Assembly: GCA_024709245.1 (NCBI GenBank)
Contig: JANJXB010000051.1
Coordinates: forward strand, 1 to 43,083
Direction: 5' to 3'
DNA: 43,083 nucleotides
Source of the DNA: Acholeplasmataceae bacterium
GTDB lineage: Bacteria > Bacillota_I > Bacilli_A > Acholeplasmatales > Acholeplasmataceae
In this document: piece after piece, positions 25,163-33,918 of the stretch
Position numbering within the stretch: position 1 is the first letter of the stretch
Layout: every line of letters begins with the position of its first letter
The notes under the pieces: generated by a model
Database searches by the model: none
Seen by the model: the letters and a program-made list of their open reading frames with translations, nothing else
What the model was told of the DNA's origin: nothing
Translations under genes and position numbers: made by a program

Positions 25163-25915
25163 TTACTTGAGTTTTCGGCCTTTCTTCACCAGGGTTTGAA
25201 CGATAAAACTTGCAACATCGTTGGCATATTTCTTCGGACCAAACCCAGCATCATAACCAAGTTCTTTGGCAAGTCCGAAATTGATTCTTGGTCCACCAAT
25301 GATGGCGATGAATCGATCTCTCATTTTTTCTGCTTCGAGAAGTTCAACGAAAGCTGTTAGATTTTGAATATGGATGTCTTTTTGTGTCACAGTTTGACTG
25401 ATCAGAATGACATCTGCATCATACTCGATTGCTTTTTCGAGTAATACCTCATTTTCGACTTGTCCACCTAGATTATAGGCTTTTATGCCACGATAGCGTT
25501 CGAGTCCATAATGTCCATTATATCCTTTCATGTTCATGATGGCATCAATGCCTACCGTGTGTGCATCAGTTCCTGTCGATGCTCCCACAATGACGATAGG
25601 TGCTTGTAGATGATGATCAATGAATCTTTCGACTTCTTCCATCTCCATGGATGAGGATTCTATCTCAGTCACAGAGAGTGTTGTTGTATCTATCTGATGC
25701 TCGACAGTTCCATAAATAATATAGAAAGAGAAGGACTCCGATAGTGCAGCACTGTGCACGACTGCAGGGTTATGAATGCCCATGAGTGATGCAAAACGTT
25801 TTGCTGCTTCTTCGCCTAATGCATTATGTGGCATAGGAAGTGAGAAGGATATTTGGATTTTGCCATCATTCATGGTATCTCCATAGGGTCTAATCCAATT
25901 AGATTTGAGAGGCAT
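25163..25915 (-). CDS. kamE: D-lysine 5,6-aminomutase beta subunit (B12-binding)
   Basis: GASTGTDAHTVGIDAIMNMKGYNGHYGLERYRGIKAYNLGGQV; downstream of kamD. Confidence 0.93.
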   Translation of the reverse strand: MPLKSNWIRPYGDTMNDGKIQISFSLPMPHNALGEEAAKRFASLMGIHNPAVVHSAALSESFSFYIIYGTVEHQIDTTTLSVTEIESSSMEMEEVERFIDHHLQAPIVIVGASTGTDAHTVGIDAIMNMKGYNGHYGLERYRGIKAYNLGGQVENEVLLEKAIEYDADVILISQTVTQKDIHIQNLTAFVELLEAEKMRDRFIAIIGGPRINFGLAKELGYDAGFGPKKYANDVASFIVQTLVKKGRKLK

Positions 25916-27476
25916 TTTTTTTCACCTCGAGTCTTTCAAGCATCAAATCCAATACTGGATTCATGTAGCAATCATCTTTGATCAAAACACCTTTCAATCC
26001 TTTACCACCATTTTCATGTCTGGAAATACCAGCAAATGTTCCTTTCTCAAGTGTTTTAAACATGCCATCTTTTTTGATCTCATCGAGGAGTGATTGTGCA
26101 TGACTTAAAACTTGATGTGCTCGCTTCATGATGATTCCATCTGTCTTATAGGTGATTTCATCTCCAAAGTTTTGAAATGCTTTTTCGATGTAGTTCGCAT
26201 TATCGAGTGCAATTGCACGATCACTTACAAAAGGAGTGTGGATTGCTTCTGTCATCATGCCAAGAAGTTGAATGGATTGATGCGATGTGACGGAAGCAAT
26301 GTTAAATAAGGCATTTTGAATGGTTCCTTTGAAAATGTCTCCTGTCATGTGTTTGGTTGGAGGCATATATTTGAGTGGAGAATTCGGAAATATCTCTCTT
26401 GTCATTTCCGCTTGTGCAAGTTCATATAGAAAGCTATTCTCAAATGATGGATCAATCTCATAGGCATGACCCAAACCCATGAGTGATTCAGGCATCTTGG
26501 CAAGTTTTGCAAATTGCTCATTAATGAACTGTGAAGCTAAAACTGTATGAGCATGTTCGATTGCATCAGATGTGGTCAAATAGTTATCTTCACCTGTGTT
26601 GATGATGATTTCTGCATAGGCAGATAATACTCTTGAGAAATATTGGTCAACAAAGGTTCTTTTCATGTTGATATCTCGAAAGATAATTCCATACAGTGAA
26701 TCATTGAGCATCATATCCAAACGTTCTACTGCACCTAAAGTTGCAATCTCAGGCATACATAGACCTGAAGCATAATTGACAAGTTTAATGTATCTACCTT
26801 CAGCTTCGGATGCTTCATCAAGTGCTTGACGCATCAGTCTAAAGTTTTCCTGAGTTGCGAAAGTTCCACCAAATCCTTCCGTAGTTGCTCCATTTGGAAT
26901 GTAGTCTAAAAGAGACTGACCTGTGCTTCTAATGACAGCAATGATGTCTGCACCTTTTTTAACTGCAGAGATGGCTTGTTTGATGTCTTCATAAATATTA
27001 CCGGTCGCAACAATCACATATTTGTTGGGAGTTGATTTTTTCGGTGTTCTATCTAGCCATTCTCTACGAATTGATTTCATCTCATCAATCCGTGCCAAAG
27101 TCTTCTCGAAATAAGGCATTAAATCGCCTAAATAAGGGCTTTTTGGCAATTCTTCATAGACTTTGAGATTAATAGCACCCGATTGAACTCGATGCGCAAT
27201 TTCATTGGGAGTTGCCATGTGTTCATGACATGCATACGATAGGTAATGACAGATACCTTTTGATAAATTGGCTTTTGAAAATACATGATCAACAACAACG
27301 TTCACAAGAGGAACCATCAGTTCATTCACTCCCACAACACCAAGCATTCTTAAAAGTGATCGCTCCACTGATACTGTCGTGTGCAAGTCGATGTGTGCTT
27401 GTACTTGTTTCGCAATGATGTTTGCATCATGCCTGCATCGAGATATCACTTTTGGATCGAGATTGAGTTTTCCCAT
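25899..27476 (-). CDS. kamD: D-lysine 5,6-aminomutase alpha subunit
   Basis: KVISRCRHDANIIAKQVQAHIDLHTTVSVERSLLRMLGVVG...; operon context. Confidence 0.93.
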   Translation of the reverse strand: MGKLNLDPKVISRCRHDANIIAKQVQAHIDLHTTVSVERSLLRMLGVVGVNELMVPLVNVVVDHVFSKANLSKGICHYLSYACHEHMATPNEIAHRVQSGAINLKVYEELPKSPYLGDLMPYFEKTLARIDEMKSIRREWLDRTPKKSTPNKYVIVATGNIYEDIKQAISAVKKGADIIAVIRSTGQSLLDYIPNGATTEGFGGTFATQENFRLMRQALDEASEAEGRYIKLVNYASGLCMPEIATLGAVERLDMMLNDSLYGIIFRDINMKRTFVDQYFSRVLSAYAEIIINTGEDNYLTTSDAIEHAHTVLASQFINEQFAKLAKMPESLMGLGHAYEIDPSFENSFLYELAQAEMTREIFPNSPLKYMPPTKHMTGDIFKGTIQNALFNIASVTSHQSIQLLGMMTEAIHTPFVSDRAIALDNANYIEKAFQNFGDEITYKTDGIIMKRAHQVLSHAQSLLDEIKKDGMFKTLEKGTFAGISRHENGGKGLKGVLIKDDCYMNPVLDLMLERLEVKKNASQI

Positions 27477-27478
27477 TT

Positions 27479-28453
27479 CTATTCCTCTCCTTTCACATTG
27501 ATGACTGGTAGATTCAATTCCCGTTGAAATCTTGTCATCATTTCGTTTTGATCATAGCAAGCACCATCCGGTCGAAATGGATTGATGGTCACCATCAAGA
27601 TCGGAATGGGTCTTGCCACTTCGATTTGAATCTTAAAATGATTCAAGGCTCGAAGATGTTTTTGTGATGCCATCCATTTCGATGGATCTTCGATGATGAG
27701 TTTGATGGATTGAATGCTTCGATTGAAAATGCAATCGATGATGGATGAAGTGATTGCACCTTGAATATAGATGGCATCGACTTCATCTTGATGCTGGTCA
27801 AGAATGGATTCTAAGTTTTTTATCTTTTTTTCATCATGTTTCACAGAATGATCTTTGAGGTAAATTGTGATTCCTGCATGAGAATCCAATGCATATGTCG
27901 TTTTATTCATACTGAAAAGACTCAGAAGATCTCTGGTTTTTTTGATTGTCTCATCCATCACAGGACTAAAAGATGCTCCTGCTGCGAGTACAATACCTTC
28001 CATCACTTCAATATTGGAAAACGTAAGTCTATTGAAAGCACCATCAATCAAGATCTTATCACAATGTTTTTTCATTGTTTTCACGACTTGATTTAACTCT
28101 TGATTGGTTGATGGGCCTGCGACAATCACGGTTCCTTCAGATGCTATTTCTACAATCAAAATTTGCCCAAGTGGTGTAATGTAATCGGTATTTTCAATCA
28201 CTTTCCATACAACATTGGATGATTCAAGACACGATAGAGTGGTTGCAACCACCATATTGGGTCTTACCATGATTGCTGGTTTTGGAAAAAAGTGAATTTG
28301 ATCTAAAGGTTCACCATCCAACCCAATGGATGTCAGTCCAATTCTGATTTCAGGATAGATTTCAATGATCTTATTCAGTGTGGTTGTTTTTCCGGCATTC
28401 TTGGCAAGACCCATGATTCCGATGACGGATACACCATCAAGAATGTCTCTCAC
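27479..28453 (-). CDS. kamB: KamB-like P-loop protein (putative aminomutase reactivase component)
   Basis: P-loop GLAKNAGKTTTLNKI; located between kamA and kamD as in known lysine-fermentation clusters. Confidence 0.75.
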   Translation of the reverse strand: MRDILDGVSVIGIMGLAKNAGKTTTLNKIIEIYPEIRIGLTSIGLDGEPLDQIHFFPKPAIMVRPNMVVATTLSCLESSNVVWKVIENTDYITPLGQILIVEIASEGTVIVAGPSTNQELNQVVKTMKKHCDKILIDGAFNRLTFSNIEVMEGIVLAAGASFSPVMDETIKKTRDLLSLFSMNKTTYALDSHAGITIYLKDHSVKHDEKKIKNLESILDQHQDEVDAIYIQGAITSSIIDCIFNRSIQSIKLIIEDPSKWMASQKHLRALNHFKIQIEVARPIPILMVTINPFRPDGACYDQNEMMTRFQRELNLPVINVKGEE

Positions 28454-29711
28454 GATTCATACGCTCTTTTCTTTTTAATAACTCAGGTTCCATCGAGATT
28501 CGATTCCCCTCAAGCAATCCTGATATACCATCCAAACGGTGTGCTTTACAATCCTCACACGCACATTCGGATTTATAATTTTCAGGTTCACTGTATGTGG
28601 TAATGACACCTTCAAAGTTTCTCAAGATCACTTTGCCTGGAGCTTGCGATACAACATAGTTTGGCATCACTGGAATTTTTCCACCACCTCCAGGTGCATC
28701 CACAACAAACGTTGGGACAGCAAAACCGCTGATGTGTCCCCTTAATCCTTCGATGATTTCAATCCCCTTACTGATCGATGTTCTGAAATGTTCAATGCCT
28801 TTGGACAAATCACATTGATATAAATAATATGGTCTCACTCGAATCGCGATTAATCCCTTGACAAGTTTTCGCATGATATGTACACAATCATTCACACCTT
28901 TAAGAAGGACACTTTGATTGCCAACAGGTATACCCGCATCAGCGAGTCTGTCAATAGCAAGTTTACTTTCAATTGTAATTTCATCTGGATGATTAAAATG
29001 TGTATTCACCCAAATTGGGTGATATTTTTTGAGCATATTCACCAATTTCTCAGTCACACGCTGAGGCATAACAACAGGTGTTCTTGTCCCAAATCGAATC
29101 ACTTGGACATGATCAATAGCTCTAAGTTTTTTCAAGATATACTCGATGCGCTCATCAGAAGCCATGAATGCATCGCCGCCTGAAAGGAGGACATCATTGA
29201 CTTCTTCATGATTTTTGATGTACTCAATTGCTCGATCGATCTGCTCTATTTTCAATTCAGCATCTTTCTGACCCGCAAATCTTCTTCTTGTACAATGTCT
29301 GCAATATGTTGAGCACATATCGGTAATCAAAAAAAGTACACGATCAGGATAGCGGTGTGTGAGCCCAGGAACAGGTGAATCATGATCTTCTGCTAAAGGA
29401 TCCAATAGATCATTTTTTCCCATCAATAACTCAGATCCAAAAGGTATAGCTTGCTTTCGGATTGGGCAATTCGGGTTATTTGGATCAATCAATGTTAAAT
29501 AATATGGGGTGATGGCCATGCGTAAAGAACCGAGGACTTGCTCGATGGTATGCTCTTCTTCAGTGGTGAGTGTCATGTATTTTCTCAACTGAACCGCATT
29601 TTTGATTCGATTGGATGTCTGCCATTTCCAATCGTTCCAGTCATCATCGGACACATCTTTGAAGTATTGATATCTTCTTTCGAGATATGCCTGATTGAAT
29701 TCTGCTTTCAT
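28437..29711 (-). CDS. kamA: L-lysine 2,3-aminomutase (radical SAM)
   Basis: MCSTYCRHCTRRRFAG (CxxxCxxC), VLLSGGDAFMAS, VDAPGGGGKIPVMPNYV; start at 29711 after GGAG. Confidence 0.95.
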   Translation of the reverse strand: MKAEFNQAYLERRYQYFKDVSDDDWNDWKWQTSNRIKNAVQLRKYMTLTTEEEHTIEQVLGSLRMAITPYYLTLIDPNNPNCPIRKQAIPFGSELLMGKNDLLDPLAEDHDSPVPGLTHRYPDRVLFLITDMCSTYCRHCTRRRFAGQKDAELKIEQIDRAIEYIKNHEEVNDVLLSGGDAFMASDERIEYILKKLRAIDHVQVIRFGTRTPVVMPQRVTEKLVNMLKKYHPIWVNTHFNHPDEITIESKLAIDRLADAGIPVGNQSVLLKGVNDCVHIMRKLVKGLIAIRVRPYYLYQCDLSKGIEHFRTSISKGIEIIEGLRGHISGFAVPTFVVDAPGGGGKIPVMPNYVVSQAPGKVILRNFEGVITTYSEPENYKSECACEDCKAHRLDGISGLLEGNRISMEPELLKRKERMNRERHS

Positions 29712-29721
29712 ATGTTTCTCC

Positions 29722-30753
29722 CTATGTGTATCGTCTCGTGAATAAATCGAATAATGCCTTACTTTCTCTAAAAATGTCAAGCGTGAATGTTGCATGTGAT
29801 TCCGTATAACCATTTCCAATCATCATCGTAATGTCTTTTCCGACACCTTCAGCACCGAGTGCTGCCTTCGTAAAAGAGGTTGCCATAGAAAAGAAATATG
29901 CGATTCCATGATCTTTCGTGGTTAAAATGGTGGTCATTTCTGTGTTTTGAACATTGACAACATTGATGGTTAGATCTGCCAATCTACCCTGTGTCACACG
30001 ATGAACCATTTCGTAGATGTGAATGCTTTCCGTCGCATCACCAACAAGTATATGATCACAATATCCAAGAGAATCTAATTCTCTTTTTTGGGCTTGATCA
30101 TAAACTAATCCAATGACTATCCCTGTGGGTTTTACCATTTTGTGTGCTTGATAGCAGCAGAGAACTCCACTTTTACCTGCAGCACCAATGACAAATACCG
30201 TATCTCCTTTGTGTGCAAGCTTATTGACTTGTGCGGGAGCACCTGCAACATCCAATGCGGATAGGACAAGTTTTTCATCAAGATCTGGAGGCAAAATGGA
30301 GAAAAGTCCTGAATCAAAGAGAATCGCTTGTCCTACAATCCGCACCTGGTCGGTGTTTAAGTCGATATCAAGAATATCAACTAAATGGAGTGGTGTGAGT
30401 GAAAGTGATACCAGTGTTGCGATGCGCATGCCTTTTTTGAGGGTTTGATCATGAAACATGGATCCCACTTCACGTACAGTACCTATCAACATACCCCCAC
30501 TTTTAGTGATAGGGTTTTGCATCTTACCTTGTGTTGTGATGATATCTTTCATCATCTGTCTCATTTTTGTCAAATCATCGTTGCAGGCATTTCGGATCTG
30601 ATGAAAGGATGCTGAATCAATGTTTAAAATATCGACGTCAATCAAGACTTCATTCTCATAAATCATGGGTGTAGAGTCAATTTGATAAGCTGCTTGAGGT
30701 AGAACACCTTTAGGTTCGATGACTCTGTGTGTTCCATACTTGCATGGTGTCAT
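29722..30753 (-). CDS. kdd: L-erythro-3,5-diaminohexanoate dehydrogenase
   Basis: KYGTHRVIEPKGVLPQAAYQIDS; GDTVFVIGAAGKSGVLCCYQA; operon context. Confidence 0.92.
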   Translation of the reverse strand: MTPCKYGTHRVIEPKGVLPQAAYQIDSTPMIYENEVLIDVDILNIDSASFHQIRNACNDDLTKMRQMMKDIITTQGKMQNPITKSGGMLIGTVREVGSMFHDQTLKKGMRIATLVSLSLTPLHLVDILDIDLNTDQVRIVGQAILFDSGLFSILPPDLDEKLVLSALDVAGAPAQVNKLAHKGDTVFVIGAAGKSGVLCCYQAHKMVKPTGIVIGLVYDQAQKRELDSLGYCDHILVGDATESIHIYEMVHRVTQGRLADLTINVVNVQNTEMTTILTTKDHGIAYFFSMATSFTKAALGAEGVGKDITMMIGNGYTESHATFTLDIFRESKALFDLFTRRYT

Positions 30754-31580
30754 TTGCGTTTTCCCCCGATTCCCAAAATCATTCTAGCTTCATTTGGCGA
30801 TGCAATTTCTCTGCCAAAAGATGCTGCCATATGTGCAACTTTTTGAACCAAAACACCATTACCTTCAGCAAGTTTTCCTTTTTCAAGGTACAGATTATCT
30901 TCAAGTCCTACCCTGACGTGTCCTCCATGCTTGATCGAAAGTAAGGCAAGTGGAAATTCGTATTTGCCTATGCCAGCAACACTGAAGGTTGCATCCTTTG
31001 GAATGCTTTCTTTAAGAAATATAAAATCTCTTTCCTCTCCAGTCATTCCACCATTCACACCGAGAACAAAACTGAAATGCAAAGGTGCATGAATCAGTCC
31101 TTTTCGATGCAATCTAAGCACCTGATCAATATGTCCTTTTTCAAAACATTCAAGTTCTGGAAATATATTTCTATCCTTCATGATTTTTGCAAAATGAATG
31201 ATATCATTTTCAGTATTGACAAATATAGAATCTCCACCAAAATTGAGTGTTCCACAATCTAAAGTCGCCATTTCGATGTCAAGTTCAGTCGGTTGTAATC
31301 TTTCCTCTCGCTTCATGCCAATGGCTCCACCTGTTGAAGGTTGGATGATAACATCAGGACATCTAGACCGTATTTTTTCGATGATTTTTTGATATCGATC
31401 TTGATCTTGTGTTGGAGTACCATCATCAAATCGTGCGTGAACATGGATAATCGATGCACCAGCAGAGTAAGCTTGGAAAGCTTGTTCAGCCATTTCATCA
31501 ATCGTATATGGGACAAATGGATTGTCATTTTTAGTGACTTCTGCACCTGTGATTGCACAGGTGATGATGAGTTTATTCAT
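30750..31580 (-). CDS. kce: 3-keto-5-aminohexanoate cleavage enzyme
   Basis: [83 protein letters not shown]. Confidence 0.95.
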
Positions 31581-31965
31581 GTTTTTTTCGTTGATGAATT
31601 AATGGAACCACACAGGTACCATATGCTTCAGTCGTCAAAATCTTTCTTTCTAAAACATCAGCGGCAGATGGTGATATTTCGGGTCTCGCTTCAATCACTT
31701 TGTAACATTTGAAATGCATTTTACGTGAAGTGTTGCCGACTGTAGTGATTTCGCCAACCACTTCAATAAAATCACCTGCATGCAAAGGTGCAAAAAAATC
31801 GACCTTTTCATAAGCTCTAAGCAAACCCTCATTACCATCATGATGAATCAACAATTCGGTTGCAATATCGCCAAACAACCCAAGTACTCTTGCACCGTCA
31901 ACCAAAGATCCTCCATAATGGGCATCCTGTTGACTTAGTCTTAACCGGTGAACCACTCTTTCCAT
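31573..31965 (-). CDS. kal: 3-aminobutyryl-CoA ammonia-lyase (hotdog fold)
   Basis: [63 protein letters not shown]; position in operon. Confidence 0.92.
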
Positions 31966-31966
31966 A

Positions 31967-32617
31967 CTATACCTCCATGATTTTAACTTGATTAATCATC
32001 AGTTTAGCTTCTGTTTGTTTAACGATGTCATCGATGGTGACATCGGGATGTCTTTCAATTAAATGTAACCCGTCTTCTTTAACTTCGATGACTGCCAGTT
32101 CAGTCACAATTAAATGGACTCTTCGATAAGCAGTCAGTGGCAATGTACAACGTTTCTTGATTTTAGGTTCTCCTGAAGATGTTGTATGCGTGGTTGCAAT
32201 GATGACTTTTTTTGCACCTGTCACTAAATCCATAGAACCACCCATTCCTGGAACTAATTTACCTGGAACAATCCATGAAGCTAGAGAACCTTCTTCATCG
32301 ACTTCGAGTGCTCCAAGAACCGTAACATCGAGGTGACCACCTCGGATGATCACAAATGACAAATCTGAATCAAATAAAACAGCGTGTTTGAGTAAGGTAG
32401 CAAATTGCCCTGAGGGGTTTGTTAGATTTTTATCAATGTGATTGGGATCTGCCAAGGGTCCAAGTCCGATGATCCCGTTTTCACTTTGAAGATAAATATC
32501 GATATCTTTTGGCACGTAATTTGCCACAAGTGTTGGTATACCGATTCCAAGATTAACCAAATTTCCATCTTTCAGTTCTTTAGCAATCCGTTTCGCAATG
32601 ATGTGTTTACTTTCCAT
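31967..32617 (-). CDS. atoA: Butyrate-acetoacetate CoA-transferase subunit B
   Basis: [35 protein letters not shown]; start at 32617 after AGGAGGTG. Confidence 0.92.
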
Positions 32618-33263
32618 CTTGAACACCTCCTAAGATGTAATCAATGAAGATGTGTGGTGTGATGATGTGTTCAGGATGGATGTCTTCGACTCTTTTTTCG
32701 ACAAGAGCAATCACTAAATCGGCTGCAGTTGCCATGATGGGATTGAAATTTCTGGCTGATCCTGAATAGGTGAGACTTCCAAGTGGATCTGCATGATAAG
32801 CGTTAATCAGTGCAACATCTGCACGAATGGGTTCAGCCAAAATATACGGTTTTCCTTTGACATGAATGATTGTTTTACCCTCTTCCGCAGGAGTATGGAG
32901 TCCAGTAGGTGTCAAGATGCCTCCTAAACCACTCCCATGTGCCCTGATCTGATCGACGAAGGTACCTTGTGGAATGAGTTCAACTTCGATTTTCTTCTCA
33001 CTCATGAGCCTACCTGCATTCGGATTTGTTCCAATATGGGTGACAACTAGTTTTTTCACTTGATTGTTGATGAGCAGTTTACCAATACCTTGATTCGGAT
33101 AACCTGCGTCATTGGCAATGATGGTTAAGTCTTTGACGCCACTTTCAACCATATAGTCAATCAATAACTCAGGTGTGCCGCAAGTCAGGAACCCCCCGAT
33201 CATGATGCTCATGCCGTCTTTGATCATCTCTTGAAACTGTATTTTCGTGATTTGCTTTTTCAT
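32607..33263 (-). CDS. atoD: Butyrate-acetoacetate CoA-transferase subunit A
   Basis: MIGGFLTCGTPELLIDYMVESGVKDLTIIANDAGYPNQGIGKLL. Confidence 0.93.
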   Translation of the reverse strand: MKKQITKIQFQEMIKDGMSIMIGGFLTCGTPELLIDYMVESGVKDLTIIANDAGYPNQGIGKLLINNQVKKLVVTHIGTNPNAGRLMSEKKIEVELIPQGTFVDQIRAHGSGLGGILTPTGLHTPAEEGKTIIHVKGKPYILAEPIRADVALINAYHADPLGSLTYSGSARNFNPIMATAADLVIALVEKRVEDIHPEHIITPHIFIDYILGGVQDGK

Positions 33264-33675
33264 CAGTGTTTTCCTTCCTTGGCATCATCACAGCTTCACC
33301 TGTGAGCATACACTCGCCTTCTTGGCTAAAAATTTCCGTCGTAAAGATCACACGGTTCTTTTCTAGTATAATCTCTTTCACTGTAATCTTTACAGTGAGT
33401 TGCATTCCAGGATAGACAGGTTTTAGGAATTTCAAAGACTGACCACAATAAATGGTGCCTTCCCCAGGATATTCCATACCAAAAATCTTAGAAAATAGAC
33501 AACCGACCAACATGCCATGGACAATCGGTGTTTTAAAAATGGTTTTTTTACAATACTCTTCATCAAAGTGTGCTAAATTCATATCTCCTGTCAGTTCTCC
33601 AAATTTTCTGATGTCATCACACGTGATGACTCTTTGGTAACTTCGAGTGTCTCCAATCTGCATTTTTCTGATCAT
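33169..33675 (-). CDS. MaoC/PhaJ-like (R)-specific enoyl-CoA hydratase
   Basis: FGELTGDMNLAHFDEEYCKKTIFKTPIVHGMLVGCLFSKIFG (hydratase-2 motif); start at 33675 after GAGAGGAG. Confidence 0.85.
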   Translation of the reverse strand: MIRKMQIGDTRSYQRVITCDDIRKFGELTGDMNLAHFDEEYCKKTIFKTPIVHGMLVGCLFSKIFGMEYPGEGTIYCGQSLKFLKPVYPGMQLTVKITVKEIILEKNRVIFTTEIFSQEGECMLTGEAVMMPRKENTDEKANHENTVSRDDQRRHEHHDRGVPDLRHT

Positions 33676-33691
33676 AATGGCTCCTCTCTTG

Positions 33692-33724
33692 AAAATAAAA
33701 AGAACTGTTGGCAAACAGCTCTCC
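33692..33724 (-). terminator. Terminator of the lysine riboswitch expression platform
   Basis: Minus strand GGAGAGCTGTT-TGCC-AACAGTTCTTTTTATTTT; the 5' arm is the aptamer 3' end. Confidence 0.75.
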
Positions 33725-33877
33725 ATTTGTTCAAAATGGCAATGAAGGAGGTGTATCCTCAATCATCAAGGCGGATAAAGGGACTTTATCAGGCTTTCGG
33801 CGGCATACTCCTTCGTGATTCACAGGATATCCCATCCTATGGTGAATCAGTACACAATAGACCGCGCCTCTGTATCG
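33705..33877 (-). ncRNA. Lysine riboswitch (L-box)
   Basis: Minus strand order of conserved blocks: ACAGAGGCGCGGTC...GTACTGA...GAAGGAGTATGCCGCCGAAAGCC...CTTTATCCGCCTTG...ATGGAGAGCTGT; upstream of lysine-degradation operon. Confidence 0.92.
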
Positions 33878-33888
33878 TATCTAGTTCT

Positions 33889-33918
33889 ATTATAATCGAT
33901 GAATGTAAGCGCTGTCAA
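33889..33918 (-). promoter_or_regulatory. Promoter for the lysine riboswitch/operon
   Basis: Minus strand TTGACA-18 nt-TATAAT. Confidence 0.8.

What the first reader, a model, noticed from the sequence alone, without database searches (positions are those of the whole stretch)
33692..33918. Lysine riboswitch on a lysine-fermentation operon wired as a transcriptional ON switch
Seen: L-box conserved blocks are intact, and the 3' strand of P1 (GGAGAGCTGTT) is itself the 5' arm of an 11-bp (GU-tolerant) terminator hairpin GGAGAGCTGTT-TGCC-AACAGTTCTTTT followed by a U-rich tract. No separate antiterminator is apparent. Inference: lysine binding stabilises P1, sequesters the terminator arm and allows read-through, which fits a catabolic operon. 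Established: most lysine riboswitches repress biosynthesis or transport; activating LYS elements on catabolic genes have been proposed computationally, so the logic is not wholly new but remains uncommon.
Basis: partly seen in the sequence, partly recalled or inferred. Interest (0 to 1): 0.7.

Follow-up and report, generated by a model that had tools for sequence, protein, structure and literature searches.

The report
Lysine-activated riboswitch on lysine-fermentation operon
An RNA sensor at the start of a lysine-eating operon in an Acholeplasma-like bacterium is built so that bound lysine should prevent premature transcription stop and turn the genes on; the same wiring is found in about 50 relatives, and the type was already predicted, though not proven, in the literature.

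Summary
Window 33880-33708 (-) is a lysine riboswitch (RF00168, 62 bits, E 6e-14), starting just after a perfect TTGACA-18-TATAAT promoter and preceding a ten-gene lysine-fermentation operon (MaoC, CoA-transferase A/B, Kal, Kce, Kdd, KamA, KamB, KamD, KamE). The 3' strand of P1 (33718-33715) lies inside the 5' arm of an 11-pair terminator (33724-33699), so the two helices cannot coexist. Nothing between P1 and the terminator reverses the logic.

I tested the ON reading comparatively. In 51 of 51 such riboswitches on lysine-fermentation operons from Bacilli-class genomes the terminator overlaps P1. Of 73 other lysine riboswitches, 4 were scored as overlapping, and those look like wrongly picked hairpins. 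Forcing P1 drops the median terminator probability from 0.93 to 0.00 in the fermentation set and raises it from 0.57 to 0.91 in the rest. P1-5', the shared strand and the terminator 3' arm change together. The same genome carries two separate-terminator switches, on lysA and on an ABC transporter.

ON lysine riboswitches on catabolic genes were predicted earlier, so this is a new member of a known kind. Its aptamer group has altered P2/L4 contact residues. Lysine binding and read-through remain untested.

The parts
33889..33918 (-). sigma-70-type promoter TTGACA-18-TATAAT; transcription expected to start about 33882, directly at the aptamer
   Evidence: 12/12 consensus match; function inferred
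33708..33880 (-). lysine riboswitch aptamer (L box)
   Evidence: RF00168, 62 bits, E 6e-14, full length; also found from the genome side
33870..33873 (-). P1 5' strand core ACAG
   Evidence: pairs with 33718-33715; these four P1 positions are 98-100% paired in the 51 ON sequences
33715..33718 (-). P1 3' strand core CUGU, shared with the terminator 5' arm
33780..33833 (-). L2 loop GGGAU (33833-33829) and L3 loop GUCCC (33784-33780), able to form the usual kissing contact
   Evidence: read directly from the sequence; five complementary bases including one G-U
33699..33724 (-). intrinsic terminator hairpin, 11 pairs, loop TGCC, its 5' arm containing the P1 3' strand
   Evidence: MFE fold
33691..33700 (-). 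U-rich tract TTTTATTTTC after the hairpin (first bases also pair in the stem by G-U)
33169..33675 (-). MaoC-like enoyl-CoA hydratase, first gene of the operon; Shine-Dalgarno AGAGGAG 33687-33681
   Evidence: Pfam PF01575 E 1.8e-19 (scanned from the in-frame position 33657)
32607..33263 (-). 3-oxoacid CoA-transferase subunit A
   Evidence: TIGR02429 above cut-off
31967..32626 (-). 3-oxoacid CoA-transferase subunit B
   Evidence: TIGR02428 above cut-off
31573..31965 (-). Kal, 3-aminobutyryl-CoA ammonia lyase
   Evidence: NF052388 above cut-off
30750..31580 (-). Kce, 3-keto-5-aminohexanoate cleavage enzyme
   Evidence: NF052387 above cut-off
29722..30753 (-). Kdd, 3,5-diaminohexanoate dehydrogenase
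   Evidence: NF052381 above cut-off
28437..29819 (-). KamA, lysine 2,3-aminomutase
   Evidence: TIGR03820 above cut-off
27479..28453 (-). KamB, lysine 5,6-aminomutase reactivase subunit
   Evidence: NF052386 above cut-off
25899..27476 (-). KamD, lysine 5,6-aminomutase alpha
   Evidence: NF052384 above cut-off
25163..25915 (-). KamE, lysine 5,6-aminomutase beta (B12-binding)
   Evidence: NF052385 above cut-off

Best explanation
It is a lysine riboswitch that acts as a transcriptional ON switch for a lysine-fermentation operon. RNA polymerase starts at about 33882 and makes the aptamer; the short P1 helix (ACAG/CUGU) closes first. If lysine is bound, P1 and the J5/1 side of the pocket stay folded and hold the 5' arm of the terminator, so polymerase reads through into maoC-...-kamE. 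Without lysine, the emerging terminator 3' arm (33709-33699) displaces the weak P1 and the hairpin stops transcription. Shown here: the aptamer, the mutually exclusive P1 and terminator helices, their conservation and covariation, and the operon. Inferred: lysine binding, the kinetic race, and read-through in cells.
For: Aptamer above threshold; pocket residues conserved between the ON and OFF sets. Terminator overlaps P1 in 51/51 fermentation-linked switches against 4/73 others, the four apparently mis-picked hairpins. Ensemble test: forcing P1 removes the terminator in 51/51 (median 0.93 to 0.00) while in the other 74 the median rises from 0.57 to 0.91. Three-strand covariation: C-G-C to U-A-U in 10, A-U-A to G-C-G in 8. 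First gene downstream is MaoC or Kal in all 51; ABC-transporter or lysA/lysC/dapF genes in 60 of the 74 others. 33 genomes hold both kinds. Length-by-length folding of the window RNA: P1 0.75-0.89 until the 3' arm emerges, then P1 0.00 / terminator 0.80 without ligand.
Against: No experiment. At equilibrium P1 must gain about 8 kcal/mol to beat the finished terminator, more than binding at ordinary lysine levels would give, so the switch must work kinetically or through tertiary energy that the model lacks. P1 has only four firm pairs; the two outer pairs are mostly unpaired in the ON set. P2/L4 contact residues differ from consensus, so lysine affinity could be altered.
Confidence: 0.88

Rival explanations
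1. A conventional OFF switch: lysine causes termination, through an antiterminator not yet seen.
For: Most lysine riboswitches repress; two others in the same genome sit on lysA-lysC-dapF and on an ABC transporter and have separate downstream terminators.
Against: Requires P1 and terminator to coexist; they share 33718-33715 and forced P1 gives terminator probability 0.00 in this RNA and lowers it in 51/51 relatives. No stretch between P1 and the terminator exists in which an antiterminator could lie. Repressing a catabolic operon by its substrate makes little sense.
Confidence: 0.04
2. The same switch architecture, but the aptamer senses a different ligand, for example beta-lysine or another pathway intermediate.
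For: The fermentation-linked aptamers group together on one side of a branch (99/86 support with P1 removed; 73/72 when J5/1 and part of P5 are removed too) and most have changed P2/L4 contact residues.
Against: The pocket residues listed in PMC3764141 that could be mapped (A10, G11, G12, G14, C15, G77-A81, G114, U140, G141, G163, C166) are kept in the ON set.
Confidence: 0.06
3. The hairpin is a fixed attenuator and the aptamer is a decayed remnant with no regulatory role.
For: The score of 62 bits is lower than that of many L boxes; P2/L4 contacts differ.
Against: Pocket residues and P1/terminator pairing are kept with compensating changes across several families.
Confidence: 0.02

Closest known systems
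Lysine riboswitches with ON logic predicted on catabolic genes (Rodionov 2003 as cited in Barrick and Breaker 2007, PMC2258182; Mukherjee 2017, PMC5584792: C. sticklandii kal-kce, F. nucleatum kal, Thermoanaerobacter pspF3-kal-kce)
   Same: Lysine aptamer on lysine-fermentation genes; metabolite binding buries part of a terminator stem.
   Different: Here the switch heads the whole operon from maoC to kamE in an Acholeplasma-like genome, and the shared-strand anatomy is shown for 51 loci; the P2/L4 region is changed in most of them. The clostridial and fusobacterial sequences could not be compared here.
Classical OFF lysine riboswitches (B. subtilis lysC type; here the lysA and ABC-transporter leaders of the same genome)
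   Same: Same aptamer family and ligand pocket.
   Different: In the OFF type the terminator lies after P1 and is freed when P1 forms; here P1 and terminator exclude each other.
Adenine ON riboswitch of B. subtilis pbuE/ydhL (from general knowledge)
   Same: P1 strand is part of the terminator; ligand binding prevents termination in a kinetic race.
   Different: Different aptamer and ligand.

Membership tests
Lysine riboswitch (RF00168) | Covariance-model score above the curated threshold over the full model | tested here: met
   62 bits vs 30, model 1-182
Lysine riboswitch (RF00168) | Conserved ligand-pocket residues at the five-way junction | tested here: met
   AGAGG-GC, GCCGAA, UG, AG.GC invariant or nearly so in ON and OFF sets, mapped with PMC3764141
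Lysine riboswitch (RF00168) | L2-L3 kissing contact | tested here: met
   Loop sequences GGGAU and GUCCC are complementary in the window; sequence only
Lysine riboswitch (RF00168) | L4-P2 contact (A127-A23-G69 triple; conserved, not used to define the family) | tested here: inconclusive
   A23 and A26 equivalents changed or missing, A127 equivalent kept
Lysine riboswitch (RF00168) | Selective L-lysine binding | not testable with these tools
   needs in-line probing or calorimetry
Transcriptional ON riboswitch (P1 excludes terminator) | P1 strand forms part of an intrinsic terminator, with no element that reverses the logic | tested here: met
Transcriptional ON riboswitch (P1 excludes terminator) | Ligand increases read-through | not testable with these tools
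   needs in vitro transcription
Lysine-fermentation (kam/kal/kce/kdd) operon | Equivalog matches for KamA, KamB, KamD, KamE, Kdd, Kce, Kal | tested here: met
   all above curated cut-offs

The most novel reading that the evidence does not exclude
The fermentation-linked ON lysine riboswitches of Bacilli and Acholeplasma-like bacteria are a separate, old aptamer lineage that has kept ON logic throughout, and whose larger branch (the window's) has replaced the otherwise conserved L4-P2 contact (pentaloop GAAUA with AUGAGUA/GAAAGG) by another loop-receptor pair (GNACR with UUG-GUA/GAAGG), possibly tuning P1 closure for activation.
Probability: 0.4. Interest if true: 0.55.

Novelty: new member of a known kind. 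Interest (0 to 1): 0.42.

Why it matters
ON riboswitches are a minority, and for lysine, as far as the papers that could be searched show, the ON type has been predicted but not demonstrated. Genomes that hold a lysine ON switch on catabolism and lysine OFF switches on synthesis and uptake offer a natural pair: the same ligand and nearly the same pocket with opposite output, set by how P1 is joined to the terminator. That makes the rule for genetic sign directly testable, and gives a ready lysine-induced part.

Tried and rejected
A duplex score between the P1 3' region and the terminator 5' arm as an OFF signature was uninformative, because the arm itself overlaps P1 in the ON set and AGCU is palindromic. 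Of the other 73 riboswitches, 4 overlapped by program (L021, L034, L071, L142); by eye they look like mis-picked hairpins and were not counted as ON. The 8 others in which forced P1 lowered terminator probability include lysA leaders with a second competing GCGAAAGC/GCUUUUGC helix and wrong hairpin picks; not pursued. The whole-collection scan with Kdd gave only one named relative, Acholeplasmataceae bacterium UBA6190, so clostridial and fusobacterial operons could not be compared; the phylum search found Kdd only within the same class. Rodionov 2003 is not held, so its content is cited through later papers. A translational mechanism was set aside: the Shine-Dalgarno sequence lies after the U tract, outside both helices.

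Full report
What is there. The minus strand from 33918 to 33691 holds a consensus promoter (12/12), a full-length lysine riboswitch aptamer (33880-33708, RF00168, 62 bits, E 6e-14) and an 11-pair terminator hairpin with a U-rich tract (33724-33699). Downstream lie ten genes read in the same direction, seven of them at equivalog level in the lysine-fermentation pathway: Kal, Kce, Kdd, KamA, KamB, KamD and KamE; a MaoC-like hydratase and two CoA-transferase subunits come first. The genome belongs to an Acholeplasma-like bacterium; the closest named relative found is Acholeplasmataceae bacterium UBA6190 (Kdd 80% identical), which carries the same lysine and cobalamin riboswitches in the same region.

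Anatomy of the switch. The P1 core is ACAG (33873-33870) with CUGU (33718-33715), and the latter four bases are part of the terminator's 5' arm. P1 and terminator therefore exclude each other. There is no spacer in which a separate antiterminator could lie. By the general rule for such leaders, whatever stabilises P1 prevents termination: an ON switch.

Comparative test. A search over the genome's class found Kdd in 59 of 395 genomes. RF00168 searches of those genomes gave, with the window's own, 49 riboswitches on the same contig and strand a few kilobases upstream of Kdd, and two more on other contigs whose first gene is a fermentation gene. Taking 73 other lysine riboswitches as comparison, a terminator finder that was told nothing of the grouping put the terminator over the P1 3' strand in 49/49 linked cases and both extra ones, and in 4/73 others, which by eye are mis-picked hairpins. 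Two further kam-linked switches found later (L160, L163) look the same by eye. In ensemble folding, forcing P1 lowered the terminator in 51/51 (median 0.93 to 0.00), while in the other 74 the median rose from 0.57 to 0.91, with 33 up, 33 neutral and 8 down. The first gene is MaoC or Kal in all 51 ON cases; 60 of the other 74 precede an ABC transporter or lysA, lysC or dapF, and 14 matched none of the references. Thirty-three genomes hold both kinds, among them the window's own, whose other two switches precede lysA-lysC-dapF and an ABC transporter.

Covariation. At the four core positions the triple (P1 5', shared base, terminator 3') changes together: C-G-C becomes U-A-U in 10 sequences and A-U-A becomes G-C-G in 8. 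Both helices are thus kept. The sequences are related, so these are few independent events, but they fall in different families.

Energetics. Folding the window RNA as it lengthens, P1 stands at 0.75-0.89 until the terminator 3' arm emerges, then falls to 0.00 as the terminator reaches 0.80. A bonus on P1 of about -8 kcal/mol is needed to hold it at equilibrium; -6 holds it only briefly. Ordinary binding would not supply this at equilibrium, so control must be kinetic, as in other ON switches of this design, or helped by tertiary contacts absent from the model. This step is inferred.

Is it still a lysine aptamer. The pocket residues named in PMC3764141 are kept in the ON set. L2 and L3 of the window have complementary loops (GGGAU and GUCCC). 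What differs in the larger ON branch, the window included, is the P2 internal loop and the L4 pentaloop, which make the L4-P2 contact called fully conserved in that paper. With P1 removed, ON and OFF aptamers fall on two sides of one branch (99/86); after also removing J5/1 and part of P5 the split remains but support falls to 73/72. One lineage is therefore likely, not shown.

What is known. Barrick and Breaker state that certain lysine riboswitches have ON logic and bury pieces of terminator stems, citing Rodionov 2003 (PMC2258182). Mukherjee and colleagues list lysine riboswitches on kal/kce genes of C. sticklandii, F. nucleatum and Thermoanaerobacter as positively regulated (PMC5584792). 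I found no experimental demonstration in the papers that could be searched. The find is therefore a well-supported new member of a predicted kind, with a possible structural variation.

Noticed in passing
window 33856-33851, 33814-33810 and 33756-33752; ON set in general: In most ON aptamers (the MaoC-first group, window included) the P2 internal loop lost its A23 and A26 equivalents and the L4 pentaloop changed from GAAUA to about GNACR, although the L4-P2 triple was described as fully conserved.
   Followed up: partly
window 33675-33169 and own genome: The genome shows no acyl-CoA dehydrogenase (PF00441) and no 3HCDH domain (PF00725), but has a thiolase, and a MaoC hydratase heads the operon. 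Crotonyl-CoA may be hydrated and split to acetate rather than reduced to butyrate; the genome is about 93% complete, so absence is not certain.
   Followed up: partly
window 38029-37857 and 24778-24254: A cobalamin riboswitch (85.6 bits) precedes DUF4430 and membrane-protein genes that may be a B12 uptake system, and a PduO-type cobalamin adenosyltransferase follows kamE; both fit the B12 need of KamDE. The cobalamin switch is also near the kam operon in L159 and L160.
   Followed up: partly
L005 about 4320-4260; L089, L138, L139, L145: The lysA leaders have a third competing helix, GCGAAAGC with GCUUUUGC, beside P1, antiterminator and terminator; its role in the switch is unclear.
   Followed up: no
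L161, L162, L165: A few genomes with Kdd (G012, G168, G210) show no lysine riboswitch in the stretch searched upstream of it, so other control may be used there.
   Followed up: no
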